Shown here piece after piece: positions 36,500 through 64,000 of a DNA stretch of 64,000 nt. Source of the DNA: Trichodelitschia bisporula (taxonomy: Eukaryota > Ascomycota > Dothideomycetes > Phaeotrichales > Phaeotrichaceae). The position numbers were made by a program, and so were the translations under genes. A model generated the notes under the pieces. It did not search any database and was not told where the DNA came from. It was given only the letters and a program-made list of their open reading frames with translations. The stretch is taken from assembly GCA_010356995.1 (NCBI GenBank), contig ML996688.1, positions 1,648,579 through 1,712,578 on the forward strand. The letters run 5' to 3'. The stretch's first letter is position 1. Every line of letters starts with the position of its first letter.

Positions 36500-37743
36500 G
36501 ACTTGGAGGCGTTGTAGACGGGTAGTAGGTACATGGTCCACTTTTCCTCTGGTTTTAAGATGAGCTTGACTGGACTGGTGTGATGGAAATTATGGCTTGC
36601 ATTTCTGGGTCGCTTTGTATGTCTCTTTTTCCTGTGCTGAGCTTTTGTCCGGCGGAATTGAGTGTGCGTTTCGGGAGCTGGTGCTGGGGTTGGAACGGGT
36701 TCGTAGGTATGGATTTATCATGCTTGATGCTGCAAGGGTGGGTAGAGAGCGTGTTCCCGGTGCTTTAAGTGTTGGTAGAAAAATGCCACTCATTGCGATG
36801 AGGGTTTGAGAATCGCATCATCGAGCTGTACATTTGCCTCTAATGCGTAGTGCACTGCCCAGCGCGAACGCAAGGCTGCTCAATCTAACCGTCACTCTCT
36901 CCTCACCACATCAACTTCAATACCCACGTAGACCTTTGTAGCTTGGTGTTTCCAGTGGACGTGGCTTCTGGCGGTCGCCCGGGGAAAATCGTATTGAGGT
37001 CCGGGAAAGCCTTGGCTCCAGCAACAAAGGAAATATCAGAAAGTGCACCATCAATAAGCCCAACTGCGCCGGTAGTTTAAGGGTAGAATTTAGCCTTCCC
37101 AAGGCTGAGGTCCGAGTTCGATTCTCGGCCGGCGCACTGTTTTTATCTTGTTCATTAATGGGCACGCCCTTTTTGCTGTTTTGAAGGTGCGTAGATGGTT
37201 GAGAGGTACGGGAAGGTGCGGGGAGGTGTTCGGGACGGAGGATTCGGGACCTCAGCTGCGTTTACGGCGGATATCCACCTGTCCGCTGGCCACTTCAATG
37301 TTCACTTTTGACTTGTAGAACTAATTCTTACTGGAACTCACTGGAATGGCTTTTCAGACACTATGTCGAGGTCATGCATAATGAAGAAAATTCAATCCCA
37401 AATTGCCATCTCATACAAGCGGAACCTTATCTTCATGAGCACCTAGCAAGTTCGATTCTAGCTTTCATAATGGAGCATAGCCTAAGCACGAGCGGAAGCA
37501 ACGAAGTTGCAAAGTGAAAGTTGATCATGATTTTTGGATAGCGACAGGATAACTATGGCAAGCCACGATGGACTATCGTGGTACCGCTTCGCCGCTCCCA
37601 TCTCGCTCCTCTCTCTTCGTCTTTTGATGCTCCTTCCAATGGTGATATTTCGCCTGCCTTGAGAGTACACCATCCTCAATCAATAGCTTCCCGCGATGTC
37701 CGAAGCTCTGCTTTTCGGCTAAAGGGTTTGAGACTAGAATCCC
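36500..37743. other. intergenic region containing tRNA-Gly
   Basis: Besides the tRNA there are only short, motif-free open frames. Right of the tRNA the sequence loses the GC-rich character of coding DNA and leads into the P450 remnant. Confidence 0.45.
37066..37136 (+). tRNA. tRNA-Gly (anticodon CCC)
   Basis: A 71-nt cloverleaf. Acceptor GCGCCGG pairs with CCGGCGC and the discriminator base is A. The D arm is GTTTAAGGGTAGAAT, the anticodon loop TTCCCAA gives anticodon CCC, and the T arm is CCGAGTTCGATTCTCGG. A TTTTT pol III terminator follows at 37140-37144. No intron. Confidence 0.95.
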
Positions 37744-41390: not shown

Positions 41391-43350
41391 CTACTCCACC
41401 AACTCATACCGAAACTCTCTCCTGACCCTCTCCGCCAGCCCAAACACCTCCTCCCTACTCCGCCTACTCACCAGCAAAAAATAAGCCAAATAGCTCAACT
41501 GCAGGCCCCAGGTCCCTTAAACCTACTACTCCTCTTAAGCACAGTCCGATAATCTACCATCGCCTCCCTCAACACCTCATCCTTCTTCAACAACTCCGCG
41601 CCCGCATCCTCCGTCTGCATAACCCCCGCCCTCTCCTCGGCAGTATCATCAGCACAAGATGTCATTGCGGTTCCGTCAGGGACGGCTGCGCCAGCGCGCG
41701 GTACCGCGCCTCATCCCCAATCAAGAGGAGCACCTGCAAAGCGTAGTAATCGACGCCGTACGTCAGCGCCGTGGCTACGCTCTCGAAGTACCCGGGCGGA
41801 CGCGCCTTAACCTCATGAAGCCATACACTCGGCTCCCCTCCCTCCCCCCCCATTCCCATCACCAATCGGGACCATATCCACCCTCCCCTCCACCGTTTTC
41901 CCATACTCCATCCGCGACCCCCTAATCCGTCCCTCAGCATAAAACGTTCCACTCCTCAACCCCATCCAGCAAATACTCTCCGCAAACCTCTCCTTCACCA
42001 GCGCTACCTCCCCCTCCGGCAAGCCGCGGGGGCAGTAGATTCGCCATCTTCTGAAACCCCGCCGCCTCCCCATCCCCAGGGGACGGGAAATCATCCGCCG
42101 CCTTCGCGAACAGAACCTCCCCATCCAACATCACAAGGTTAGCGGCAACCTCCGGTCCCGTCACAAAGAGCTCGATGAGAACATCGATATTTCCCCGGTG
42201 CCAGGTACTCGCTTTCTCGACGGCGGCGCGTAACTCGGCTTCATCCCTGACTTTGGTCACGCACTCGCTCCCCCAGCCTACGGCGGGCTTGCCCACGGCC
42301 GGGAACTGCATCTTCTCCAGCACTCCAAGCAGTTCATACACCCCGCGTATGCTTACCGCGCCTCCACCCTCGCTGTAACGCGTGAGGCCTTTATCCCCCG
42401 CCACTCTATAAGCCTCCGGATCCTCGCACCTCACCCCCCACCCCCGCAACCTGCGCAACACCCTCAACCCTCGAATCACTAACCGCCATAACCCCATCCA
42501 CCTTCTCCGGATATCCCCTTATCGCACCCACAGCCCTATCCACAAACCCATCATCCGCCTCAATATCCACGGGAACGAAAGGCTCGCGCATATCAGCGTA
42601 GGGGCCGTCGTCTGGCTCAAGCCAATGCCCCGGGTTGTTGAGTACAATGAGGGAAATTCCGAGGGCGGCGGCGGCGGCGTATATGCCGATTGAGGCTAAG
42701 GCGGAGGAGCGGGATTCGATCCAGGCTAGGCATTTGCGGCCGAGAGGCGTGGGGCAGAGGAGGGGGAGGGGGAGACGTGCGGTGAGTTCTGCGTCTAGAG
42801 CTGAGAGGCTGGTGTCAGGGGCGAGGATGGCGGCGCCGAGGGTGTTGGTGAGGAGGGCGGGGAGGGTGGGCGTGACGACTACGCCGTGGATGTGCGGGAG
42901 GCCGGGGAGGCACTGCAGCGGTTCCACGAAACCGAAGGTCTGAGAAGCCAAGTGACAGCCTTTGAGACGCCGCTCAACGATGTCGCACCGGATGGTCCAA
43001 CCGCGAGTTAGGGGGAGAATGAGGACGGCAGTGCTAGGGGTTGAGGGGGAGGAGGCGAGGGCGCTGTCGAAGAGGAGGGATTCTAGGGGTGGTGGGGTGG
43101 GGATTGGGTCTGAGGAGTTTGGGGAGAGGAGGAGGGTACCGCTTTTTTGAGATTAGGTTCGTGGGATGGGGAAGAGGTCGGGGAGAGTGAGAGGGAGAGA
43201 GTTGTGAAGGGCCGGCTTCCTTGAGCAGGGTTGAGAGTCCAGTTGATGAGGATGTGTTCTGCGAGTGTTAGAGCATGTGGTCGGGGAGAGACGGGACTTA
43301 CTTGGCTCGTTGAAGGCGGCGGTGAAGGCGGTCCACCATGTCTTGCTCAT
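41391..43350 (-). pseudogene. ATP-grasp carboxylate-amine ligase, broken copy
   Basis: The minus strand encodes in order: MSKTWWTAFTAAFNEP (exon 43302-43350, then a 43-nt intron to 43259), LESLLFDSALASSP, RGWTIRCDIVERRLKGCHLA, GIYAAAAALGISLIVLNNPG, CEDPEAYRVAGDKGLTRY, KPAVGWGSECVTKV, VLIELFVTGPEVAANLVMLD with the ATP-grasp patch DDFPSPGD, LRSGTFYAEGRIRGSRMEYG, LHEVKARPPGYFESVATALT, GVDYYALQ and a C-terminus ending FRYELVE. Protein sequence is well kept, but about six frame changes and one in-frame TGA (after SLTEPQ) prevent one product. Most frame changes fall in short A, G or C runs. Either a recently lost gene or a locally poor consensus. Confidence 0.8.
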
Positions 43351-47255: not shown

Positions 47256-48184
47256 TCACCTCCTCCTCTTCCCCTTCCCTTTAGATTTAAACTTCGGTCC
47301 CTCAATACTCGCCACATCCCTGCTATTAAGCACCAACGTCCCCCCCCTAAACCTGCCAACCGCCGGCGCATCCACCGCCCGCTCCCTCCTCCCCACACTC
47401 TTCCCCTTCGCTTTCTGCGCAACCTCAAGCACAATCCCCGCCTCCTTCGCCTCCTTCCGTCTCTTCGTTTCCCTCTCAGCCCCCTTGCGCACTATACCTT
47501 TCCGATGCGCCATCGGCATCTTTTCTTGTTTAAACAAGCTGCCTTTCGCGCCTAGTGCTTGGAGGCGGAGATCGAGCGCTTTGTGCCGGTTTTTGCCGGT
47601 GGGATCGAGGGCACCTGAGGTGCGGTCTGCGGAGAGGAGGTGAGATTCGGAGAGGAGGCGTTGGAGGGCAACATCGTTTTTTAGGTTCGCGGCGGAGTCT
47701 TCGTCTTCTGCGGGGGTGGGCTTGGGCCCTGAAGAGGGGAAGGGGGTGGGTTTTGCGGCGGTGGGCGGTTTGGAGGACTGCGCTGTGAGCGGGCATCTCA
47801 TTAGACTGCAGGGTGACATACGAGGAAGGCTTTTAACTCCGACTTGTCTATCTCCAGGGCGCGCGAGGGCGTGCTATGCACGACGACCACGGGCGCGGGC
47901 ACGGACTCGGACTCGGACTCGGACTCGGAGTCAAAGCCCGTCCACTCGTCTTCATCCTCGTCCTCCTCCTCCGCGGACTCGTGGTTCCCCTCGTCCGCAG
48001 CGGGAGCGAAGGGCAGCGGCGCGAACTTGGCTTCGAACGCGCGCTTGAAGATGGCTTGGAGGTCACTGTCTCCGTCGCTTTCGGGCTCAGCTGCCTTCGT
48101 TCCCGGAGCAGGTTTGGTTGCCGGAGCTGATTTGGGTGCCTCAGTGGGCCGTTTGCGCTTGCCGAGGGGGGCGAGGGAGGGCAT
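47256..48184 (-). CDS. faf1: Faf1-like ribosome-biogenesis protein
   Basis: Yeast Faf1 (human C1orf131 type) is needed for pre-rRNA processing and 40S subunit formation in the nucleolus. Exons (minus) are 47822-48184 and 47256-47777, giving 294 residues, with a 44-nt GTATGT intron. MPSLAPLGKRKRP is a basic start, followed by an acidic/Ser patch (EEEDEDEDEWTGFDSESESE) and SELKAFLSSKPPT across the intron. The conserved domain is NLKNDVALQRLLSESHLL, GKNRHKALDLRLQALGAKGS, LFKQEKMPMAHRKGI, RRERAVDAPAVGRFRGGTL and LNSRDVASIEGP. Convergent with get4, 130 bp between stops. An in-frame upstream ATG at 48259 would add 25 unlikely residues. Confidence 0.88.
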
Positions 48185-52366: not shown

Positions 52367-52902
52367 CCCATCCATCTCCCCTTCACCTTCCCCAATCTCT
52401 TCCCGCCGGCTTCCCGTCTTCCCATCTTCTTTCCTTTCTTCCATCTTCCCTCCTTTGATCTTCCTTACTTCCATCTTCCTTCCCTCATCTTCCCTCCCCG
52501 TCCCTTCGCATCTCCCCTCCACCCCATCCCACCCCATCCACCCTCAACCTACCTACCATCACACCTATCTACCATAACATCTACCTACCACCACGCCCTT
52601 CCTTCTCTTTACCCCTCCAGCAAAGACAAAAGGTCAAGCCAGCCACGTGCTTTATTAACCTGCAGCATGACCCTAACCCATACCCAAACCCACGGACCCT
52701 CACACGCATGACACACGCGCATAAAACCCATTCTGACGCCGGCCCCACGCTCCCTGCTCCTTGGTCCTGTAGGGCGTGCATGTGCCGGGCCTCACGCAGG
52801 CCCGAGCGATGGAAATGCAAGGCTGGCCCCAGGGCAGAGCACTTGGCGGGGTCTAGACTATCGAGACTTCCTGAATCGAGAGGGGCTTAGATATGCTGCT
52901 CA

Positions 52903-53027
52903 AGGAGGCAGGTACGATCGGTCATTGAGGAGGCAGGTACGATCGGTCTTTGAGGAGGTAGGTACATTCCGTCTTTGAGGAGGCAGGTGCACTCGGTCTT
53001 TGAGGAAGCAGGCACATGCAGTTTTTG
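52903..53027. repeat. tandem repeat, 5 copies of 25 bp
   Basis: The unit AGGAGGCAGGTACGATCGGT plus CTTTG is repeated five times head to tail. Copies 1 and 2 differ by one base; copies 3 to 5 are progressively more divergent. Non-coding, between the pyrimidine tract and the 3' end of the BIM1-like gene. Confidence 0.9.
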
Positions 53028-53237: not shown

Positions 53238-53965
53238 TCAAATGACAACCGCAACCATGCCCGCCGCACCAAGCACGCCCACCGCCCAGGCACCTACCCG
53301 ACCGGCACCCGAACTCGGCTTCGCGGCCGCAGCCGTGCTCGCCGCCGAGCTGGCGGCCGAGGACGTCTTACCGCCCGACGTGGTAGTCCCATTCGGGCTG
53401 GCGTCGGCCTGGGCCCCGCTGAAGAGGGTAGCCGTCACGCCGGTGCTGTTCTTGCAGTGGTCGGTGTAGTCGGATGTGGAGAGGGGGGCGTCAGTGAAGG
53501 TCACGTCGGCGCACTGGCAAGGTTCGTTAGTGCTTGCTCAAGAACTTGATATAGGGGGGGGAGGAGACAAACCTGGTACAGCCCACCACTCGGATCGCCA
53601 TTCGTGAGCACCAGGATGGTGCCGTTGTCCCCTGCCTTAACGCTGGATGGGACGTTAACGCCGCCGATGCAGAAGTTGTCAGGGCCGTTTTCTTGGAATT
53701 GTTGACGGAGGACGGTCGTGAAGTCGTCCCCGGTAGGCGAGTTTCCGGTTGCCAGCAGGACTTTGCCCTTCACGGCTGTGTGCTCCATGTTGAGCTGGAT
53801 GGGGGCGTTGGTGAGCGGGAAGGGCGTGCGGGTGGAGCTGGGACTGTCGAAGCCGCCGCAGGGGTAGGCGACGATCTTGTCTTCATCGAAGCCACGGGCT
53901 GGGGGCCAGACGAGATGGAAGTGGGCGAGGGTAAGAGTTGGGAGGAGGAAGGCTGTGAACCGCAT
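53238..53965 (-). CDS. X325/BIM1-like LPMO-type copper protein, secreted and GPI-anchored
   Basis: Exons (minus) are 53573-53965 and 53238-53513 (59-nt intron), giving 222 residues. The signal peptide MRFTAFLLPTLTLA is followed directly by histidine, so the mature protein starts HFHLVWPPARG, the hallmark of LPMO-like copper proteins. Likely copper ligands are His1, His48 (in LNMEHTAVKG) and Asp120 (in YQCADVTF), mature numbering. Four cysteines (22, 85, 118, 133 or nearby) can form two disulfides; PCGGF and NFCIGGVNVP are family motifs. A Ser/Ala/Thr linker and C-terminal hydrophobic tail (GVLGAAGMVAVVI) indicate a GPI anchor. Family member Bim1 of Cryptococcus aids copper import with Ctr transporters and does not cut polysaccharides. 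Neighbours are a Ctr transporter and a metalloreductase. Confidence 0.88.
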
Positions 53966-55513
53966 TTTGGCGGTTGGGGATAAGACTGAATTGGGGGGTG
54001 ATTTTCTGGCGCTGAGAAAGATGGGCGGGGGTGTGCTTCTGGTGTTGAAAAAGATGGGAGGGGAGTTGATTTATATGGGAGTGCGAGCAGAGAAACTCGT
54101 CAGGGCGAGGAGACGGTCTTGGATGTGGGCCGTGGATGGAGAAGTGGAGGCGTAGCCAGAGAACAATGGAAATATCGACTGCAAGAGGGGATGCACACGT
54201 CAAGAGCAGTCAATTGCGAAGCCCGAACCAAAGGTAGAAAGCACAGTTAAAGTACCGGAACGCAGCTACTTTTAAGCCCCGCCCCCCCCCGCCTCGCGCC
54301 TTCTCAAATGCCAAACGCGTTGCGCCAGAGGACACCAAATTCCCTTCGCGGCTGGCGTCCCTGGAATGAGCGCAGGCGCGGCAAAAGCTTGACTTCCCCC
54401 AAGGATCCGGCTCGACGGCACTGTTTGTCTGCTGTACCTTCATGCGGCTGACTTGACACCGCGGATCGGGCTCGGTGCGACATCGCTTTCGGAGTTTGAA
54501 GTGGAGTTTGAAGTCATGTTCCCGTGACGCCGATCGGCGACCCGATGTGCTATTTCTCCGCCGTCTACTACGTAAACCACAGTTACTGGTCCCATCACAT
54601 CGTCCAAACCATAGTTCTACCTACCCAACATTATTTAACTTCGCCGGTCTCCTCCCCTCCCAAACTATCCATCATCCCTTCCTTCAAAACCTCCCATCGC
54701 CCCTTCGGTTTCCAAATCAGCCCATCTCCAAAACTCCCGCTCCGCCAAAATCTCACACCCCGCCAACTGCGCAAGATTGAGCACATTACCCCACCACGCT
54801 CCGCATGTCGACCCGCGCCAAAAAAAGCGCCACCACGACTCAGACCCGCAGGTGGGATGGCGGTTAGCCTAGCGTGGCGCGGCGTGGCTTGCCGCTTGCC
54901 GCAAACAGCACATCCACCTCCCCCTCCCCCTCCAAAAATCCCACCTTCACGCTTGCCCTACCGTGTACACTAACCTCGCGGCCCGCGCATAGGCGAGTCG
55001 CACTGACCCGGATCGTGGGAGGATTTTCATGAATGTTAGGGCGGCAGGGCTTAGAGGGGAAGGTCGAGGCCGGGAATGGAATGTGCCCCTTCAGTGCACG
55101 GCTTCCCGGCGATAATCTGCAGGGCTGTGCGCGGGACGTGACGATGGGTATCCCTGCTGGGCTGGGACGCCACAAGGCTTGTTTTGTGCTGGGGTCGGTA
55201 GTGGAGGGTGGGGCGGGAAACGGTACGTATTACGGTACCGCAAGTTGCTCCGGGTCAGGATGGGATACGTTTCGGTGGTCGTGTGCAGGTTACGAGTAGG
55301 ACACAGCAAGAGATAAAGAACAGGTTGGAGGAATGATGAATGATGGAATTAGTTCTAGCGGCCATTTGTCACTCATTCCAGTTTGAGCGACACAACCAAT
55401 GTATACGTGCTGCCGACGTACGACGCCCACCGAATGCACCCCAAGGCCAGCCCAATCCAGTACCAAAATTCCAAACTCCAGACACGCCATTGCTCCACCG
55501 GGCCCAGAGAGTA
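53966..55513. other. gene-free region between BIM1-like and Ctr genes
   Basis: This 1.5-kb stretch holds the promoter of the BIM1-like gene and the 3' end of the Ctr gene. Open frames at 54524-54973 (plus) and 54864-55175 (minus) are Pro-rich or Gly/Glu-rich and motif-free. No copper-responsive element could be named with confidence. Confidence 0.4.
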
Positions 55514-56149
55514 TCAGTGATGCTCTTCCACCGCCAGGTTATACCGCCCCAGCAGCAGCTCGCCTAGGAACGTGCCCCCCAATATGGACAAGAAGTAGCC
55601 GACGTTGAGCGTCATAACGGCCAACATGCTACATCGTCCCCATTAGCATTTGGTCATTGCGAGGATCTAGAAGCACACTCACAGCAAATACCCCACCCCC
55701 ACAATAACCGTCACAACGCACGCCCTCGGCCCATCCACACTCCACCTCCACGGCACAACCCCATGCACCGGCCGATGCACAACCTTAACCTCCTCCTCCA
55801 CGCCATTCGCCGTCAGCAACGCTGTCTTCACATTCGGCTCCGTGCTCGCGCGGGCCTTCTCTGCGACCGAAGCCTTATCCGCGACGACTACGAAGCGCCT
55901 GTCCCAGGCTTTATCGATCCAGCGCTTTTCGAGGATGTGTTTATAGACGAGGAGTGCGCGGAAGATGCCCGCGAGAGCGATGAGGAAGATGCAGGTGCCG
56001 GCGTAGCTGCCGGTGCTGTTGGGGGTCCAGTGTTGGGAGTAGAGGGGGGTGTGGGGGGAGGTGAAGAAGGTCATTTTCATGTCGGAGGCGTCCATTGTCA
56101 TGGCGGAGGCGGGTGCGGCCGCGAGGGCGGCGAGAAGAAGAGAAACCAT
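55514..56149 (-). CDS. Ctr-family copper transporter
   Basis: Exons (minus) are 55683-56149 and 55514-55628 (54-nt intron), giving 193 residues. The start at 56149 gives MVSLLLAALAAAPASA, a possible signal, then a short Met motif MTMDASDMKMTFFTSPHTPL. Helix 1 is YAGTCIFLIALAGIFRALLV. A cytosolic loop follows (KHILEKRWIDKAWDRR and onward). Helix 2 reads CVVTVIVGVGYLL and continues across the intron into LMLAVMTLNVGYFLSILGG, holding the selectivity MxxxM (MLAVM). Helix 3 holds GxxxG (GTFLG) packing. Ctr trimers import Cu(I). Upstream in-frame ATGs would add 53 residues without family similarity. Divergent from the reductase gene, so co-regulation by copper or iron status is likely but inferred. 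Confidence 0.92.
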
Positions 56150-57345
56150 GGGAGTGGGGGCGGGTTGAGGGTTTGCGTGAAGTGTGGACGGTGCAGACGT
56201 GAGGGCGAGGAGTATTGATGTGCGATTTAACGGCGGATAGACATACGTCGAGTTCGAGTCGAGTCGAGGTGTTTGTGGAGGTTGAGTGTGGGGAGAATCC
56301 TCACACAAGGGAAAATTAGTGGCCGGTGCCGGGTGTCGCGGGCGCGGGCGCGATTAGAGCAGGAATTGATGATGTGAGCGGGGTGTGGAACGGCGCGGGG
56401 GCCAGCGCGCATTGTAAGAAGACCGAGTCTCTTGAGTCGTGGATTTACCTCCGCGACGACAGGCGGCCGAGAAGACGAGCGCTTAGGAGTTCCTTTTTCC
56501 GCCTGGAGGTGGACTTGTCCTTGTTCTTCGCATTACTCGACTTGCGGCGTTCTCTCACGCGCAAGTTGGGATGTCGAACTGGACCATAGAAGTCGCTCGA
56601 GAGAACCCGGGGTGTGCAGGTAAGAGAGACGCGACTAGACCCGTCGTGGCGAAAACCTTCTCAATCATGCGCACACCAACCTGAGAGGCTGGGCGGGAGC
56701 GGAGACGTCAAACAAAGAAACCTGAGGGGGTTTGCGGCGCCTCTTGAGTCTCCGAGTACACGATGCTTCGTGCCTGAATGCGCGCGGCTGTTATGCGCTG
56801 CTGTTAAGCTTGGGGTTTTATATATGTGTGGGTTATACTTCAGTCCAATACGACTCTGGACCTCGAGACTGTGCGTCAGTTTTGTCTCTGATTGTGGCTT
56901 GAGGCGCTACCCGTAGTGGGATAGGTGGGAGTGGCGGGCTGCTAGTGGGAAGTCCAAGCTCCCTTGATATGCCGACCATCTTGGGCAGGCCGATGATACG
57001 ACCCACACATCTTTTGTCGGCTCATCCTCCTTCCCGCTTTAGGACTTTGCATGGTCTTGCTGGAAAGAATTCCAATGGTTGCAGAAGTAGTCGCTTTGGA
57101 CGCAGTGCGAGTCTGACAGGTTTGAAGTCTTCTCTTGGGCTGTTCCCGGGCGCGTGGTCATCCGTACGGCCCGAGAGTGTGGAGCTTGCTTGCGACTGCG
57201 ATTCCTACGTTCTCATCCGCTTTTACATCTCACCTCACTTCGCATCGCACCTCTTTCTACCGTCTCTCTTATACTCCATTCTCTGCCTATGGTACCTCTT
57301 CCTCGTATACTCCGAGTCGATATCTAACCCTCCATCACCGCCATC
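56150..57345. promoter_or_regulatory. divergent promoter region Ctr / ferric reductase
   Basis: This 1.2-kb region is shared by the two divergent metal-uptake genes. The last 150 bp before the reductase ATG are C/T-rich. I could not identify a clear Mac1/Cuf1 copper element or a GATA-type iron element by eye. Confidence 0.45.
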
Positions 57346-59662
57346 ATGATGGACATGGACATGGGCGACATGGACATGGGCGCCGGCTCAATGTCCATGG
57401 GCCCGGGCATTCCGTCGCTCTTCGAAGTCCAGAATGCGTACTGGGCTGTAATCGGTGCTGCTGTTGGTGTAGCATTTCTGGCCAACCTCACAAACATGTT
57501 CTTGCACCGTCAACGGTACGTCTCCTCTAGTGTCAAAAGTTGTGATCCTTTGCTCATCGTACTGCAGACTATACGCCGCGCGCAATGGCCTCCCCTCCCC
57601 CGCAAAGCCGAAATCGCTCTTCTTCACGCTGTACGCAACCGTGACGGCAGTCATACGGGAAGCGTCAAACGCGACATTAACACCGCTCAAAATCCGCAAC
57701 TACCATGTGCGCATGCCAACGGTAGGCCAAACCGTCCTAGTACTCGCCAACATGGTCGTCCTCGTCGTGCTCTGCTTCTACGGGTTCGACACCACACTCC
57801 GTGTCAATTTCGAAAACATCGGGTATCGGACTGGGTTCGTCGCCATTGCCCAAATGCCGTTGTTGTTTCTGCTGGCCGGGAAGCATAACGTCATCGGCTG
57901 GCTCTCCGGCATGAGTTACGAGCGGCTGGCGTGGTTGCACCGCTGGGCTGCGCGCTGTTTCCTGCTCACTACTTTCCTTCACTTTGGCTACTGGTTGGCT
58001 GATTGGTGGCCCTATGGCGCGTGGAAGTACCAGAAGATGGCTGGTGATCCGATCACGAAGCACGGCATCATCGCTTTCGCTGTCCTGCTCTGGATTGTAG
58101 TCTCCAGCTCCATGCCTATTCGGGGATGGAACTACGAGTTCTTCGTCGTCCAACACTTGCTCTCGTTCACTGCCTTTGTCACGATGGTCTACATCCACAC
58201 GCCCGTCGAAGTTCACCCCTGGATCTGGGCCTGCGTGGGCATTTTCTTCTTCGATCGCGTCACTCGCTGGCTTCTCGTCCTTTACACCAACATCTCATAC
58301 TTCCACCCGAAGCAACGCGCCTCAAAAACCATGACCGGTCCATGGGCATGCCGCGCCCAATTCACACCCCTCTCCAACGACACCACACGTATCACCGTCC
58401 ACGACCCTCCAGTCAATTGGGCACCGGGCCAACACGTCTTCCTCTCCTGCCACAGCGTCGTCCCATTGCAAAGCCACCCCTTCACCATCGCCTCGATCCC
58501 CCGCGACGGCAAGATGGAATTCTACGTCAAATCCGAAGGCAAAGCCACACGCTCCTTCTTCCGCCACGCCGAGCGCCAACATGGCGCCCTTCCCGTCGAC
58601 GAGCGCGGGATCCAGCGCTCCGAAGTCCGCACCGTCGCCATCGAGGGCCCATACGGTCGCGTCCGCCCGCTACGCCAATTCGACTCCGTCGTTTTGATAG
58701 CCGGTAGCTCCGGCGCTAGCTTCACGGTCCCCCTACTACGCGACATCGTCACAGGCTGGGCCGAGCCCTCCACACCTTCGTCGTGGAAGGACTGGATCAC
58801 CCCCCGCGGCGTAGCCACACGCCACGTACGCTTCGTGTGGGTCGTCAAGGCGCGCGGCCAGGCGGAGTGGTTCGCCTCGCAGCTCTCAGAGGTCGCAGCC
58901 GAAGTCGTCGCTCTGCGCGAAGCGGGCCTATCCATCGAAGTCGAGATGTCAGTCTACTGCACCTGCGACGACGGCTTCACGGCCGAGCACCGCTCCTTCC
59001 TCGCCGAACTCGCCCGCGCGGTCGGCGACGGCGGCGAGAAAGTCCGGGGTCATCTCCCAGGTGGCCGTGGCACGCCGCTGCCCGAGAAGCTGCCCGAGAA
59101 GGAAATCGAGGCTAAGAACGGCACGACGACGACTGAGTACGCTGTCAGCCCTGCCCCCGGCCGTGTCAGCATCGATGACGCTGAGGCTGAAGGGTGTGGG
59201 CCGAACGGGTGCTGCTGCAAACGCGAAGTCGAGGATGAAGACGAGGCGGGCGAGGCCGCGGAGTGCTGCTGCTGTGGGCCCGCTGAGGGCGACAACGGCC
59301 GTATAAAGGACACGCCTAGCACCGCTGCCACCGCGCCCAGCGATGCGAAAATCGAACCCCCAAAGCCCGCCGACCGCCCGACCTCCCTTGCGACAACCAC
59401 ATCCTGGACAGCCGGCGCCACGCCACGGAAGAGCCTGCTTCATCCGCGTATTGCGGTGCTATCGGGCCGTCCAGCGTGTGCGAATGTTATCCGGAAGAGC
59501 CTGGAGCAGGCGAGGGGGGAGAGTGCGGTGGTGGTGTGTGGGCCCGGTGGGCTTGTGAGTGATGTGCGGAGTGCGGTCGTGGGGCTTAGTGATGAACGGG
59601 CTGTGCATAAGGGGACGGGGGCGCAGGGGATTTGGTTGCATTGTGAGGGGTTTGCGTATTAG
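57346..59662 (+). CDS. Ferric/cupric reductase (FRE family) with Met-rich N-terminus
   Basis: Exons are 57346-57515 and 57568-59662 (52-nt intron), giving 754 residues. It starts MMDMDMGDMDMGAGSMSMGP, a Met motif like that of Ctr transporters. Helices follow. Heme-binding histidine pairs with 13-residue spacing are in HRWAARCFLLTTFLH and HLLSFTAFVTMVYIH. The FAD site is HPFTIASIP, and NADPH-site motifs are IEGPYGR, GSSGASFTVPLL and VVCGPGGLVSDVRSAV. The C-terminus is WLHCEGFAY. A long insert in the NADPH domain holds two Cys clusters, CGPNGCCCK and CCCCGP, in an acidic context. The family reduces Fe(III) and Cu(II) at the plasma membrane to feed uptake. Divergent from the Ctr gene. Confidence 0.95.
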
Positions 59663-61654
59663 GGTTGGGTATGGTGGAGTTTTTGGGGGTAGGGGGTGGG
59701 TTGGGAAGGCGTTTGGTGGGACATTGTTTGTGATGGTTAGGAACATCGTCATACTTGGAAGGCGCACCTATGTGAAGAAGGACAGCTTCTTCTTGATACC
59801 TTGGAAATGCCATAATGCTATTATCTCAATGCGCTGAACATTGCTTCAAAAATGAATGTGTCTCGTCTTTTCTTGCTCACATCTTGCCGGCTAGATGGAG
59901 TGAGAGACCGTATTCATCCTGATGGGAGCAATGGCTCGTTATGCACGTCAAGGCAACTGTAAAAGTGAAGATTGAAGTAGAAGACAAAGAGAGGAAGAGA
60001 GTCAGCGACTCTCGAGATTTTTATATGCGATGCCAAATATCCTACTTTGCTCCTTCCCTCCATCATGAGCTCAATACATCATGTCCCTTACATAAGAATG
60101 CTCCTTCCATGCCTACATAACCTTCTTCACATGCAGCAAAAGCTCTAACCCAGCATGGGATGAAAGGGCAAAAAGGGTTGTCCCCAGCGAGAATCGAACT
60201 CGCGGCCTTCGGATCGCTCCAATCTAGGACTGGATCATACAGAGTATGAGACCGACGTGATAACCGACTACACCATGGAGACTGGTATCAGATGATTGGG
60301 ATGGAACACGTTCAACAAGTATATAATCTAGGCAAAACATGCTGCCGTGGGTTGGTTCGGATGACATCACGCCGTCATGGTCTGGAGGACGTATGCTGAA
60401 AGACTGGATATGGGATAGGCCGACTAGGATGCGGAAAAATTTCTTACTGTGGGCGTTCGGCTAAGGGCTTGGGCATGGCTATCGGTCCGAACGACAGCGC
60501 ACTGTGCTCCGCTGTCGATGGGAAGGGCCCACGTGGATCGAGCAAGGACAAACACAGCGCTCGAAGCTGAACTTTCTGTTAAGGTCGATCATGTTCACCC
60601 TCTAGTCCGCAGTTCTCGCCTTCCAAGCATCTAGCGATCCTATACGACTTTCAACACCACCTGTCATAGCGCGATATGCATACCATCTCTCTGTCTGCCT
60701 CCGCCGAACGTCGTCAACTGCATCCACTCCTAAAATTCTGCGAATAAAAGTCTACAATCACCATCATATCTGGTTAGGCGATCGCTCAGACGCGCCGCTC
60801 GCGTGCCGACCATCCAGAAGAAGCATCGACTATTCACATCGGCCTGCAAGTGCGGGAGCGCTAATGGTACCTGCAGTACCCCAGATCCGCACAATGGACG
60901 CGCGCCTGTGGATGAATGCCACAATACAAATGGCCGCAGCGGCAAAGGGCCATGGAGAGTGGACGCCTGCGCGCTCAAGGAGGGAATTCGACGCGTGCCC
61001 TGAAAGCTGACGGAGCGATGAGCGAATCTGCTGATGCACGTATTTGATACGACCAGACGTATCCTTTCGGCTCTTGTCCAGTCCGCTGGCACGACAACCA
61101 GTCGAGCTGCGCTCGCTGTACTGGCTGTCGATAAAGCGCCAGTTGTACCCACTTCCTTCCGCCAGCTTTCGCCCCATCTCAACATTCTGTCTGCAGTCTG
61201 AGCAGACTCGAGCCATCAATCCGATCTGATGAAACGCACACCCCATCTCCATTTTTGCACTCGGCGTTCGCCGCTTTTGGCTGGCTGACGCATTGACCAT
61301 CCCCCCAGTCGAAGCGTACTGTATTATGTCAGCAATGAGCCTTCACGTTCCCACAACTCCTGGAGACCTCATCTTCTCTGCAAACCCGACCTTCTCACCA
61401 CCCCGTTACCTCAACCCACACGGCGAGCCTTGACAAACATTTGCATCGCGTGTCAAATCCGCTGCGCAATCGGGCCCGTTGTGTCCGCGAGCGTCTGCAG
61501 TGGGTGTCACATCCGGGCTGACCGGTTCAACACCTCCTCTCTCCGCCTCATCCTTCCCTTGCTTCTCTATCTCATCCACAACGCATCTGTATGAGAATCG
61601 CGGTACCGCAGCCGGTATCTCACTGTCCTTATCCCTAGCGGTCCTCGTCCCTAG
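59663..61654. other. intergenic region containing tRNA-Met, 2 kb
   Basis: Apart from the tRNA, the stretch holds short open frames without motifs and the promoter side of bre1. Confidence 0.45.
60179..60282 (-). tRNA. tRNA-Met (elongator, anticodon CAT) with a 30-nt intron
   Basis: On the minus strand acceptor GTCTCCA pairs with TGGGGAC (one T-G pair) and the discriminator is A. The D arm is GTGTAGTCGGTTATCAC, the anticodon loop CTCATA then intron then A, and the T arm GCGAGTTCGATTCTCGC. The intron occupies 60215-60244, one base 3' of the anticodon as usual for nuclear tRNA introns. The context CTCATAATCCGAAGG after splicing resembles elongator tRNA-Met. Mature length is about 74 nt. Confidence 0.9.
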
Positions 61655-64000
61655 ATGCTGATGGCTGAGGGCCGCAAGCGCGCCGCCGAAGACGCAGCGG
61701 CGATCAAGCCCCACAAGCGGCGCGAGGTCAGCGCACATAACAACGTGGCCACCAACGACAGCGCAGCGGCCGATGGCCACCACAACGATGTGATCAAGTT
61801 CGGAACTGCCGGCGCTGCCTGGCAAGTCGATCTCGAGGTATGCGTCTTGTATCCTGGGTGGCGTTGTGCATCGCGGGCAAACTGACGTCGCTCCAGACCT
61901 TCCAGAAAGATGCCATTATGCGCCAGATGCGTGAGCTGAAGCGCGAGAAGCAGGTCCTCGAACAGCAGCTGAAGGCCGTGCAGGAGCGCTCGGAGTTCCA
62001 TGACGAGCACTTGCGCGTTATCGATGCGTGGCTCGCTCAGGTTAGTCACGCGCATTATCTACACGGATGGTCCTCACTCTCGTAGTTGATAGATGAAGTC
62101 AAGGTTGCTGTGGGCAAGACTGAGGACTCCACCAAAGGTTTGATCCCGGTCCATGCGGTATGCTCTAGCTAATGCACCGGCAGATATCCTCCCTTCTGCG
62201 CTCTACACCGCCGATGGTATCAACTTCCGTGAGCGTCTGTCCGCTGTCTCTGAGGAGGTTAAGGCCGTCATCGCCGCCCTGTACTCTAATCTGCCCGATG
62301 CGCCTCCAGAAACGGTTCAGCTCCAGAAACGCGTGAACGAACTGCTTGCGGCCGAGAAGGGTCATATCGCGGAACTGAAGCGCATGACTGTTGAGAGACA
62401 CAATTTGGACGAGCGCCTTGAACTTGCATCATTCAGATACCTGCGCGCTGAGCGGACACTGGACCGCAACAGGAGCAAAGCCGTCTCAAGTGTTGAGATG
62501 CAAGGCCACCATCAGTCATCTGTCTCTCAGTCGGAGAATAAGCCGGAAACTACAAACGGGGTCCACGAAGTCTTGAGCGAGGATGCGCTGCGTGAGCACT
62601 CAGAGGCGGTTGCGACAGCTGCAAAGGTCAAGGAGCAGCTCGCCGCCCTGGAAGCGGACAACACCAAGTTATCCAAGGAGGTCACAATACACAAGGCCAA
62701 GCTGGAGAGCCTCTCGGACGAAGACTTCGCCCAAACGGAACTTTTCAAGGTCATGAAGGCACAGTTGGAGGACAGCTTCAACAAGCTCAACGACCTGGAG
62801 GCTACCCATATCCAGCTCCGGGAGGAGGCCAAGAAACTTCATTCCGAGCGCACGGCGTACCGAATGCAGGTTGATGAGGAGTGTCGGGTTGCCGTTGCGC
62901 GCGCGGACGAGCAGGCAGTTAAAGCCGATACTGACCTCCAGCGCATCCGGGCTACCCGTGATGAGCTGGCAGCCACCAACGACGTGCTCAGGCAGTCCTT
63001 AACCAAGTACGAAGAGCCTCTCAAACTGCAGGAGGACCTGAACAAGGGCAGCCAGCATCGCATCGAGGCACTTGAGGCCGAGGTCGAGCGGTTGAAGGTG
63101 CAGGCGGGCGAGGTTCAACCAGAAGAGGGCGAAATCGCCAAGTACGAGAAGCTCGGATTCGAAGCCGTCTGCGCCGAACTTGTGAATCTGAAGAAGTCAT
63201 ACTCGCTTCTGAACACCGAGCTTCAGTCGATGGAGCAGGCGTACAAGAAGGCGCAAACCCTGGCTTTTGGAAAGATTAAGGAGTTCATCGAAAGCGAAAC
63301 AAAAGCAGCCAAGGCGGCTGCTGATAAGGCAAAAGCGGACCAGAAGTACTTTGCAACAATGAAAGTCAAGGAGGCATATGAGATGGAACTTCGGGCGCTC
63401 AGGAAGCACAACAAGCAGAGCTCCGGTCTCATCGCCGCCATCAAAGACAGGGAGGCGAAGCGTCTCGAACAATGTGCACAACTTGAGAGGCAGGTGGCGG
63501 AGCTTCGCGATGCGATAGGCGTCATGACTCGGGAGCATCAGGCGCTGGAGCGCAAGGGAACGGATGCTACGACACTTTCGGAGGGCCTCTCGACACAAGT
63601 CAAGAAGCTGCGCGAGTCGCTGGAGGAGAAGGATGCTGCGTTGCGTGCCGTTGAGACCGCGAAGCGTGAGGTGGATGCGGATATTGAGGGTCTCAAGTCC
63701 AAGGTCGATTCGTTGAAGAAGAAGGCAGAGGAATGGCGCAATCGTGCGAGGAGCAACCCTACCGAGGAGGTTGAAATGCTCCGGGTAAGTTCCAAGCCAT
63801 CCGTTCTGATATTTCGTATTTCTAACTGCTATGAAGCGCGTTGCCTACTGCGGCACCTGCCAGCGCAACCTTAAGGACACCATCCTCCGGACATGCAACC
63901 ACCTTCTCTGCAAAGAGTGCGTCCAGGAGCGCATCAGCAACCGCATGCGCAAGTGTCCGATCTGCATGAAGCCCTTCGGAATCAACGACCACGCGACCGT
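61655..64000 (+). CDS. bre1: E3 ubiquitin ligase Bre1, 3' end at window edge
   Basis: Bre1 monoubiquitinates histone H2B with Rad6, a step needed for H3K4 methylation. Exons are 61655-61837, 61897-62040, 62086-62137, 62184-63784 and 63837 to beyond 64000. The N-terminus MLMAEGRKRAAEDAAAIKPH has a basic patch. Then TFQKDAIMRQMRELKREKQV starts a long series of coiled coils (for example KHNKQSSGLIAAIKDREAKR). Intron 4 ends with the weak acceptor TGAAG and leads into the C3HC4 RING: AYCGTCQRNLKDTILRTCNH, LLCKECVQERISNRMRKCPI and CMKPFG. All eight zinc ligands are visible. The stop codon is outside the window, probably a few codons away. A second ATG lies two codons after the first. Confidence 0.95.

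What the first reader, a model, noticed from the sequence alone, without database searches (positions are those of the whole stretch)
53238..59662. Three-gene copper-acquisition locus: X325/BIM1-like protein, Ctr transporter, metalloreductase
The sequence shows three neighbouring genes for surface copper handling. One is a secreted GPI-type protein whose mature N-terminus is the copper-binding His1 of LPMO-like folds, one is a Ctr Cu(I) importer, and one is a ferric/cupric reductase divergent from it. Known biology: Cryptococcus Bim1 works with Ctr1 in copper import. Physical clustering of all three functions suggests a reduce-capture-import module, which I have not seen described as a cluster. 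This is the best candidate for a new system in the window.
Basis: partly seen in the sequence, partly recalled or inferred. Interest (0 to 1): 0.78.

Follow-up and report, generated by a model that had tools for sequence, protein, structure and literature searches.

The report
Fungal copper-uptake three-gene cluster
Three neighbouring genes in an ascomycete fungus encode a surface copper catcher, a copper channel and a metal-reducing enzyme; the trio recurs in related fungi and most likely works as one copper-uptake kit, although a version in a well-studied mould was already noted in 2008.

Summary
In detail: window 53238-59662 carries three intact genes, a BIM1/X325-like copper protein (BLP), a Ctr importer (CTR) and a ferric/cupric reductase (FRE), in Trichodelitschia bisporula. 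The cluster is not chance: probability about 2e-5 in this genome, and 35 other contig lengths are shared by at least two of the three homologue lists, six by all three. The order BLP-CTR-FRE matches Aspergillus fumigatus Afu6g02800-02820, reported in 2008 as adjacent, co-induced and deleted together (PMC2481287); the CTR-FRE pair was reported in 110 of 127 species in 2020 (PMC7705104). So the cluster is real and old, but not new. I found no paper stating that the conserved third gene is BIM1-like. The Mac1 octamer TGTGCTCA is enriched upstream of this genome's copper genes (3 against 0.17 expected), once at BLP, but the shared CTR-FRE promoter has none. FRE carries a conserved Cys-rich insert and a Met-rich tail; the Cys motif is absent from the matched domain of 10 other reductase-type loci. 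Verdict: new member of a known kind.

The parts
53238..53965 (-). BLP: BIM1/X325-like secreted copper-binding protein, 222 aa, exons 53965-53573 and 53513-53238; predicted mature N-terminus His15; C-terminal Ser/Ala-rich stretch and hydrophobic tail of GPI type
   Evidence: PF20238 130 bits; LaX325 6ibh E 1.8e-9; H15, H62, D124 each in at least 90% of 21 sequences; signal cleavage and GPI tail read by eye, no predictor run
55514..56149 (-). CTR: Ctr-family copper importer, 193 aa, exons 56149-55683 and 55628-55514; MTMDASDMKM near the N-terminus, MLAVM (MxxxM); start may be Met17
   Evidence: (PF04145 133 bits)
57346..59662 (+). FRE: ferric/cupric reductase, 754 aa, exons 57346-57515 and 57568-59662, divergent from CTR; H181, H195, H253, H267 invariant in the alignment, at positions that fit the haem ligands of the family (assignment from family knowledge)
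   Evidence: (PF01794, PF08022, PF08030)
57346..57408 (+). Met-rich N-terminal tail of FRE before the first membrane helix
   Evidence: 57 of 65 NCBI-sourced homologues have at least 3 Met in the first 20 residues; 1.36 expected
59195..59275 (+). Cys-rich motif CGPNGCCC...CCCC (residues 600-626) inside a poorly conserved insert of the FRE NAD-binding domain
   Evidence: C605-607, C624, C626 invariant in 21; CCC in 117 of 120; no CCC in the matched domain of 10 other NAD_binding_6 loci
56150..57345 (.). CTR-FRE divergent intergenic region; no TGCTCA Mac1 core
54778..54785 (-). TGTGCTCA, exact match to the A. fumigatus MacA site, between CTR and BLP, about 813 bp upstream of the BLP start
   Evidence: site sequence from PMC6514546 (passages)

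Best explanation
This is a member of a conserved Pezizomycotina copper-uptake gene cluster. FRE moves electrons from NADPH through FAD and haem to the cell surface and reduces Cu(II) to Cu(I). The GPI-type BLP holds copper at the cell wall in a His-brace plus Asp site and hands it on, and CTR imports the Cu(I). Copper shortage is likely sensed by the genome's one detected copper-fist factor, which has the Mac1-type pair of Cys motifs. Shown here: gene identities, the copper-ligand residues of BLP, the conserved His of FRE, recurrent linkage, and enrichment of the Mac1 octamer upstream of copper genes in this genome. Inferred: copper as the physiological substrate in this species, direct transfer between the three proteins, and Mac1 control of this locus.
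For: Family membership and key residues. Linkage: 36 contig lengths shared by at least two of the three homologue lists, 7 by all three (own contig included), six of them of 5.7 to 21.3 kb; 31 of 34 named species on one contig length. A fused CTR+BLP gene model in Paraconiothyrium shows the same CTR-to-BLP order and strand (P0035). In A. fumigatus the same trio is adjacent and co-induced, and the triple deletion is menadione-sensitive with no growth loss on iron-limited medium (PMC2481287). In P. destructans BLP2 and the reductase with the next locus tag rise together on copper withholding, log2 3.57 and 3.59 (PMC13208438). A copper-fist protein with two Mac1-type motifs is present. TGTGCTCA occurs 3 times in 8.7 kb upstream of copper genes, 0.17 expected from 4 in 200 kb of sampled genome; 0 in 15 kb upstream of the 10 other NAD_binding_6 loci.
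Against: No TGCTCA core in the shared CTR-FRE promoter (0 seen; 1.08 expected at the window's rate). Three of the six upstream regions tested lack the octamer. In P. destructans the two CTR genes have locus tags far from the BLP2-FRE pair, so the trio is not obligatory. No expression data for T. bisporula. Two further BLP and two further CTR genes lie on other contigs. The A. fumigatus induction was seen with neutrophils, not copper chelation, and the mutants were no more neutrophil-sensitive. Contig-length identity is indirect, weak on chromosome-sized contigs, and the lists were capped at 120 rows.
Confidence: 0.8

Rival explanations
1. FRE serves mainly reductive iron uptake, and its place beside the copper genes reflects the need of iron oxidases for copper.
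For: Many named homologues are called ferric-chelate reductase; the A. fumigatus authors first read the locus as iron/copper assimilation.
Against: The A. fumigatus triple deletion grew normally on iron-limited medium (data not shown there). AnfreC shares an AnMac1-bound promoter with AnctrA, and F. oxysporum fre9 is a Mac1 target beside ctr3. P. destructans VC83_03096 rises on copper withholding.
Confidence: 0.09
2. BLP is mainly a cell-wall protein (chitin/chitosan integrity), and the cluster links wall remodelling with copper status rather than forming an uptake relay.
For: Cryptococcus Cbi1/Bim1 loss alters the cell wall (PMC9258870); P. destructans BLP2 is abundant in all tested conditions (PMC13208438).
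Against: Copper-ligand residues kept in at least 90% of 21 sequences; Bim1 and Ctr1 interact physically and genetically (PMC9258870); the recurrent neighbours found are CTR and FRE (wall genes were not searched for).
Confidence: 0.09
3. The three genes are neighbours by chance and are not co-regulated.
For: No Mac1 core in the shared CTR-FRE promoter; other BLP and CTR copies are unlinked.
Against: Chance 2.2e-5 in this genome and repeated linkage in other fungi, including A. fumigatus.
Confidence: 0.02

Closest known systems
Aspergillus fumigatus Afu6g02800 (GPI-anchored, BIM1-like) - Afu6g02810 (ctrA2) - Afu6g02820 (metalloreductase)
   Same: Same three families, and the same gene order BLP-CTR-FRE as implied by the locus numbers; adjacent, co-induced, deleted together (PMC2481287). 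AFUA_6G02800 is the Swiss-Prot match of a P. destructans BIM1-like protein (PMC5810475).
   Different: The 2008 paper calls the first gene only a putative GPI-anchored protein and reads the locus as iron/copper assimilation and oxidative stress; strand orientation not checked here.
AnctrA-AnfreC pair of Aspergillus nidulans, conserved in 110 of 127 species
   Same: CTR and FRE adjacent and sharing a promoter region (PMC7705104, passages).
   Different: The passages read name no BIM1-like third gene; the T. bisporula CTR-FRE region has no canonical Mac1 core.
Fusarium oxysporum ctr3-fre9-FOXG_07771 Mac1 cluster
   Same: Divergent CTR and FRE, bound and activated by Mac1 (PMC11563359, passages).
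   Different: The third gene FOXG_07771 is described as a SAM-domain protein, not BIM1-like.
Cryptococcus neoformans Cbi1/Bim1 with Ctr1
   Same: His-brace GPI protein working with a CTR importer (PMC9258870, passages).
   Different: Described as a protein partnership under Cuf1; no physical gene cluster in the passages read.
LaX325 (PDB 6ibh/6ibi/6ibj)
   Same: Fold and copper-ligand residues of BLP.
   Different: From Laetisaria arvalis; about 30% identity to the modelled orthologue.

Membership tests
X325/BIM1-like (PF20238) | PF20238 match above gathering score | tested here: met
   130.3 bits against 27
X325/BIM1-like (PF20238) | His1 after signal cleavage, second His, and Asp on a Gly-rich loop (ligands as described in PMC7529816) | tested here: met
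   H15, H62, D124 present; each in at least 90% of 21 aligned sequences; cleavage site read by eye
X325/BIM1-like (PF20238) | LPMO-like fold closest to LaX325 | tested here: met
X325/BIM1-like (PF20238) | GPI anchoring | not tested
   Tail looks right by eye; no predictor or experiment
Ctr copper transporter (PF04145) | PF04145 match and MxxxM motif | tested here: met
   133.3 bits; MLAVM in the protein; an M...M pattern in 120 of 120 listed homologues
Ctr copper transporter (PF04145) | Cu(I) transport | not testable with these tools
   needs yeast complementation
Fre metalloreductase | Ferric_reduct, FAD_binding_8 and NAD_binding_6 domains | tested here: met
Fre metalloreductase | Haem-ligand His pairs in the membrane domain | tested here: met
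   H181, H195, H253, H267 invariant in 21 sequences; their role as ligands is recalled from the family, not computed
Fre metalloreductase | Cu(II) reduction | not testable with these tools
   needs an enzyme or yeast assay
Mac1-regulated CTR-FRE pair | TGCTCA core in the shared promoter | tested here: not met
   0 in 1196 bp; one TGTGCTCA upstream of BLP and one TTTGCTCA in FRE intron 1
Mac1-regulated CTR-FRE pair | Mac1-type factor in the genome | tested here: met
   copper fist with RGHR and GRP plus two C-x-C-x4-C-x-C-x2-C-x2-H motifs at G000:C16:608053
Mac1-regulated CTR-FRE pair | Copper-dependent co-expression | not testable with these tools
   no expression data held

The most novel reading that the evidence does not exclude
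The reductase of this cluster is a dedicated copper-handling enzyme whose true substrate is Cu(II) held by BLP: reduction weakens the His/Asp site and releases Cu(I) onto the Met-rich tails of FRE and CTR, while the conserved cytosolic CCC...CxC element in FRE senses returning Cu(I) and shuts the reductase down. This would be a reductive-release relay, encoded as one old cluster, in which the reductase carries its own copper sensor.
Probability: 0.2. Interest if true: 0.72.

Novelty: new member of a known kind. Interest (0 to 1): 0.42.

Why it matters
How BIM1-type proteins serve Ctr uptake is described as unclear (PMC9258870). Recurrent linkage of BLP with a particular reductase points to that reductase as a candidate for the missing releasing step and gives a direct experiment. 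It also offers a reading of the 2008 A. fumigatus triple-deletion phenotype (menadione sensitivity without an iron defect) as copper starvation of Cu,Zn superoxide dismutase; that reading is my inference.

Tried and rejected
Chance neighbourhood was rejected. My first paralogue and promoter scans read the genome-search loci as if turned to the gene's strand; they are in genome orientation, so the minus-strand loci were read on the wrong strand. I redid both. The Cys result stands, and the promoter result changed from inconclusive to a genome-level enrichment of TGTGCTCA; for that I raised my confidence from 0.78 to 0.80. I had looked at nine motif patterns; TGTGCTCA was the one taken from the A. 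fumigatus literature, and the Poisson value (0.0008) is uncorrected. TTTGCTCA was not enriched (0 seen). Paralogue limits: 7 of the 10 other loci match most of the NAD domain, and L014, L015 and L017 only its front part; CCC strings do occur elsewhere in five fetched stretches (L007, L008, L012, L015, L016), outside the matched domain.

Extra copper genes at the flanks: eight flanking reading frames scanned with Pfam gave BRE1 (and a weak OVT1), FSAF1 and an ATP-grasp domain for three, and nothing for five; this was not a full annotation. NCBIfam gave no match for three proteins. The homologue lists show 120 of 165 BLP, 120 of 908 FRE and 120 of 1084 CTR hits, and contigs under 3 kb were dropped before counting. 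Several metagenome FRE rows start late, so the Met-tail count was made on 65 NCBI-sourced rows; on all 120 rows 60 had at least 4 Met before the first membrane helix. The strict Cys pattern held in 96 of 120 rows and a relaxed CCC..CxC pattern in 112 of 120. Lipid attachment to the CCC motif was considered and not excluded.
Full report
What is there. The window lies in Trichodelitschia bisporula (Dothideomycetes, Phaeotrichales): public proteins of that species match all three genes at 96-100% and their contig length, 1906560, equals contig C2 of the window's genome. The three genes are intact: BLP (minus, 53965-53238, 222 aa), CTR (minus, 56149-55514, 193 aa) and FRE (plus, 57346-59662, 754 aa). 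Pfam places them in the BIM1-like, Ctr and ferric reductase families well above cut-off. CTR and FRE are divergent; BLP follows CTR on the same strand.

The reductase. FRE has the three domains, four invariant His at haem-like positions (role recalled from the family), and a model (of the public T. bisporula protein P0121) that resembles NOX/DUOX enzymes. Two features stand out. Its N-terminal tail is Met-rich: 57 of 65 NCBI-sourced homologues have at least three Met in the first 20 residues, 1.36 expected. A poorly conserved insert of the NAD-binding domain carries CGPxGxCCC...CxC: CCC occurs in 117 of 120 listed homologues and in 39 of 39 rows of alignment A4, with the CxC in 38. It is absent from the matched NAD domain of the 10 other such loci of the genome, three of which match only the front part. 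Model confidence in the insert is 48, 70 and 47 over residues 591-600, 601-610 and 611-620 of P0121 and mostly below 40 around them. The homologues were chosen by similarity to this FRE, so the counts show conservation within its clade, not a link to copper.

Linkage. The homologue lists show 120 rows each. Counting contig lengths of 3 kb or more, 84 BLP, 113 FRE and 69 CTR lengths were compared: 19 shared by BLP and FRE, 13 by BLP and CTR, 18 by FRE and CTR, 36 by at least two and 7 by all three, own contig included; a jitter control gave 0.07 chance coincidences for BLP against FRE. Six shared contigs are 21.3 kb or shorter, out of 28 BLP, 35 FRE and 10 CTR contigs at or below 25 kb. Of 34 named species in at least two lists (compiled by hand), 31 have their hits on one contig length; for the other three (Venturia nashicola, Phyllosticta capitalensis, Lasiodiplodia theobromae) the rows stand for several sequences, so the lengths cannot be compared. 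Tags that are consecutive or nearly so: Verruconis PV09_00418 (BLP) and 00420 (FRE); Geoglossum M1840_004552 (CTR) and 004553 (BLP); Thelocarpon M1832_002484/002485, Bathelium M1821_003146/003147 and Xylona L228DRAFT_249662/249663 (FRE and CTR). These include Dothideomycetes, Geoglossomycetes, Xylonomycetes and Thelocarpales. Paraconiothyrium P0035 is a fused CTR+BLP model in the same order and strand.

Papers. In A. fumigatus, Afu6g02800 (GPI-anchored), Afu6g02810 (copper transporter) and Afu6g02820 (metalloreductase) are adjacent, differ by log2 11, 8 and 3 between hyphae with normal and CGD neutrophils, and were deleted together; the mutants were menadione-sensitive, not peroxide-sensitive, grew normally on iron-limited medium and were not more neutrophil-sensitive (PMC2481287, passages). 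That Afu6g02800 is BIM1-like follows from its being the Swiss-Prot match of P. destructans VC83_07867 (PMC5810475, passages), which other authors call a Bim1-like protein (PMC12113139, passages). For the P. destructans pair VC83_03096 and VC83_03095 the A. fumigatus homologues are given as XP_747795 and XP_747797 (PMC13208438, passages). AnctrA-AnfreC is conserved in 110 of 127 species (PMC7705104, passages); F. oxysporum ctr3-fre9 are Mac1 targets (PMC11563359, passages). In Coccidioides immitis, CIMG_10032 (expression library immunization antigen 1) and a copper transporter CIMG_10037 are both strongly up in young spherules (PMC8150946, passages); that CIMG_10032 is of this family is inferred from the same name on BLP hits P0040 and P0077. 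Ten searches of open-licence papers brought up no statement that a BIM1-like gene is a conserved third member of the CTR-FRE pair; I read passages of the papers named above, not whole texts, and the original Bim1 and X325 reports were not read.

Regulation. The genome has one detected copper-fist protein, with RGHR, GRP and two Mac1-type Cys motifs. TGTGCTCA, the A. fumigatus MacA site, occurs 3 times in 8.7 kb upstream of copper genes (this BLP, the CTR on C16, the BLP on C19), 0.17 expected from 200 kb of sampled genome, and not at all in 15 kb upstream of the 10 other NAD_binding_6 loci; the TGCTCA core gives 12 against 5.3, and 6 against 9.2 in the controls. The CTR-FRE intergenic region has neither; FRE intron 1 has one TTTGCTCA. 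So Mac1-type control of copper genes is likely in this fungus, but a motif shared by all three promoters of the trio is not seen.

Judgement. The most likely reading is a reduce-capture-import copper module; identities and linkage are shown, the relay and its regulation are inferred. As a cluster it is already visible in the literature piece by piece, so this locus is a new member of a known kind. The freshest, untested idea is that the linked reductase acts on BLP-bound copper and carries copper-binding elements on both sides of the membrane.

Noticed in passing
FRE 59195-59275 (Cys motif) and 57346-57408 (Met tail): Conserved Cys-rich element in an otherwise variable insert, and a Met-rich N-terminal tail; the listing of one paper search showed no description of either.
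   Followed up: partly
G000:C2:1751114-1751309 (L020, L021); P0025, P0041: BLP gene models in Delitschia and Clohesyomyces are fused to a downstream NAC-domain protein, and a T. bisporula NAC locus lies about 43 kb from the trio on the same contig, hinting at older synteny.
   Followed up: partly
P0001 against window 53514-53572: The public T. bisporula BLP model keeps nine extra residues at the splice; 19 of the 20 relatives aligned lack an insert there and one (Lentithecium P0030) has a five-residue one, so the splice used here looks right.
   Followed up: yes
L002 (CTR on C16) and L005 (BLP on C19): Unlinked CTR and BLP paralogues also have an upstream TGTGCTCA, at 435 and 692 bases from the matched exon.
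   Followed up: partly
window 60181-60280: By eye this looks like an intron-bearing tRNA on the minus strand, but ARAGORN reported only a tRNA-Gly at 37066-37137.
   Followed up: no
window 52900-53015: By eye, several head-to-tail copies of a roughly 35-base unit just downstream of BLP.
   Followed up: no
window 42409-43152, 47259-47873, 62144-63871: Flanking frames match ATP-grasp N-terminal, FSAF1 and BRE1 families; none is a known copper gene.
   Followed up: partly
P. destructans VC83_03095/03096 (PMC12113139, PMC13208438): BLP2 and a metalloreductase have consecutive locus tags and nearly equal protein induction on copper withholding (log2 3.57 and 3.59); the passages read do not remark on the adjacency.
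   Followed up: yes
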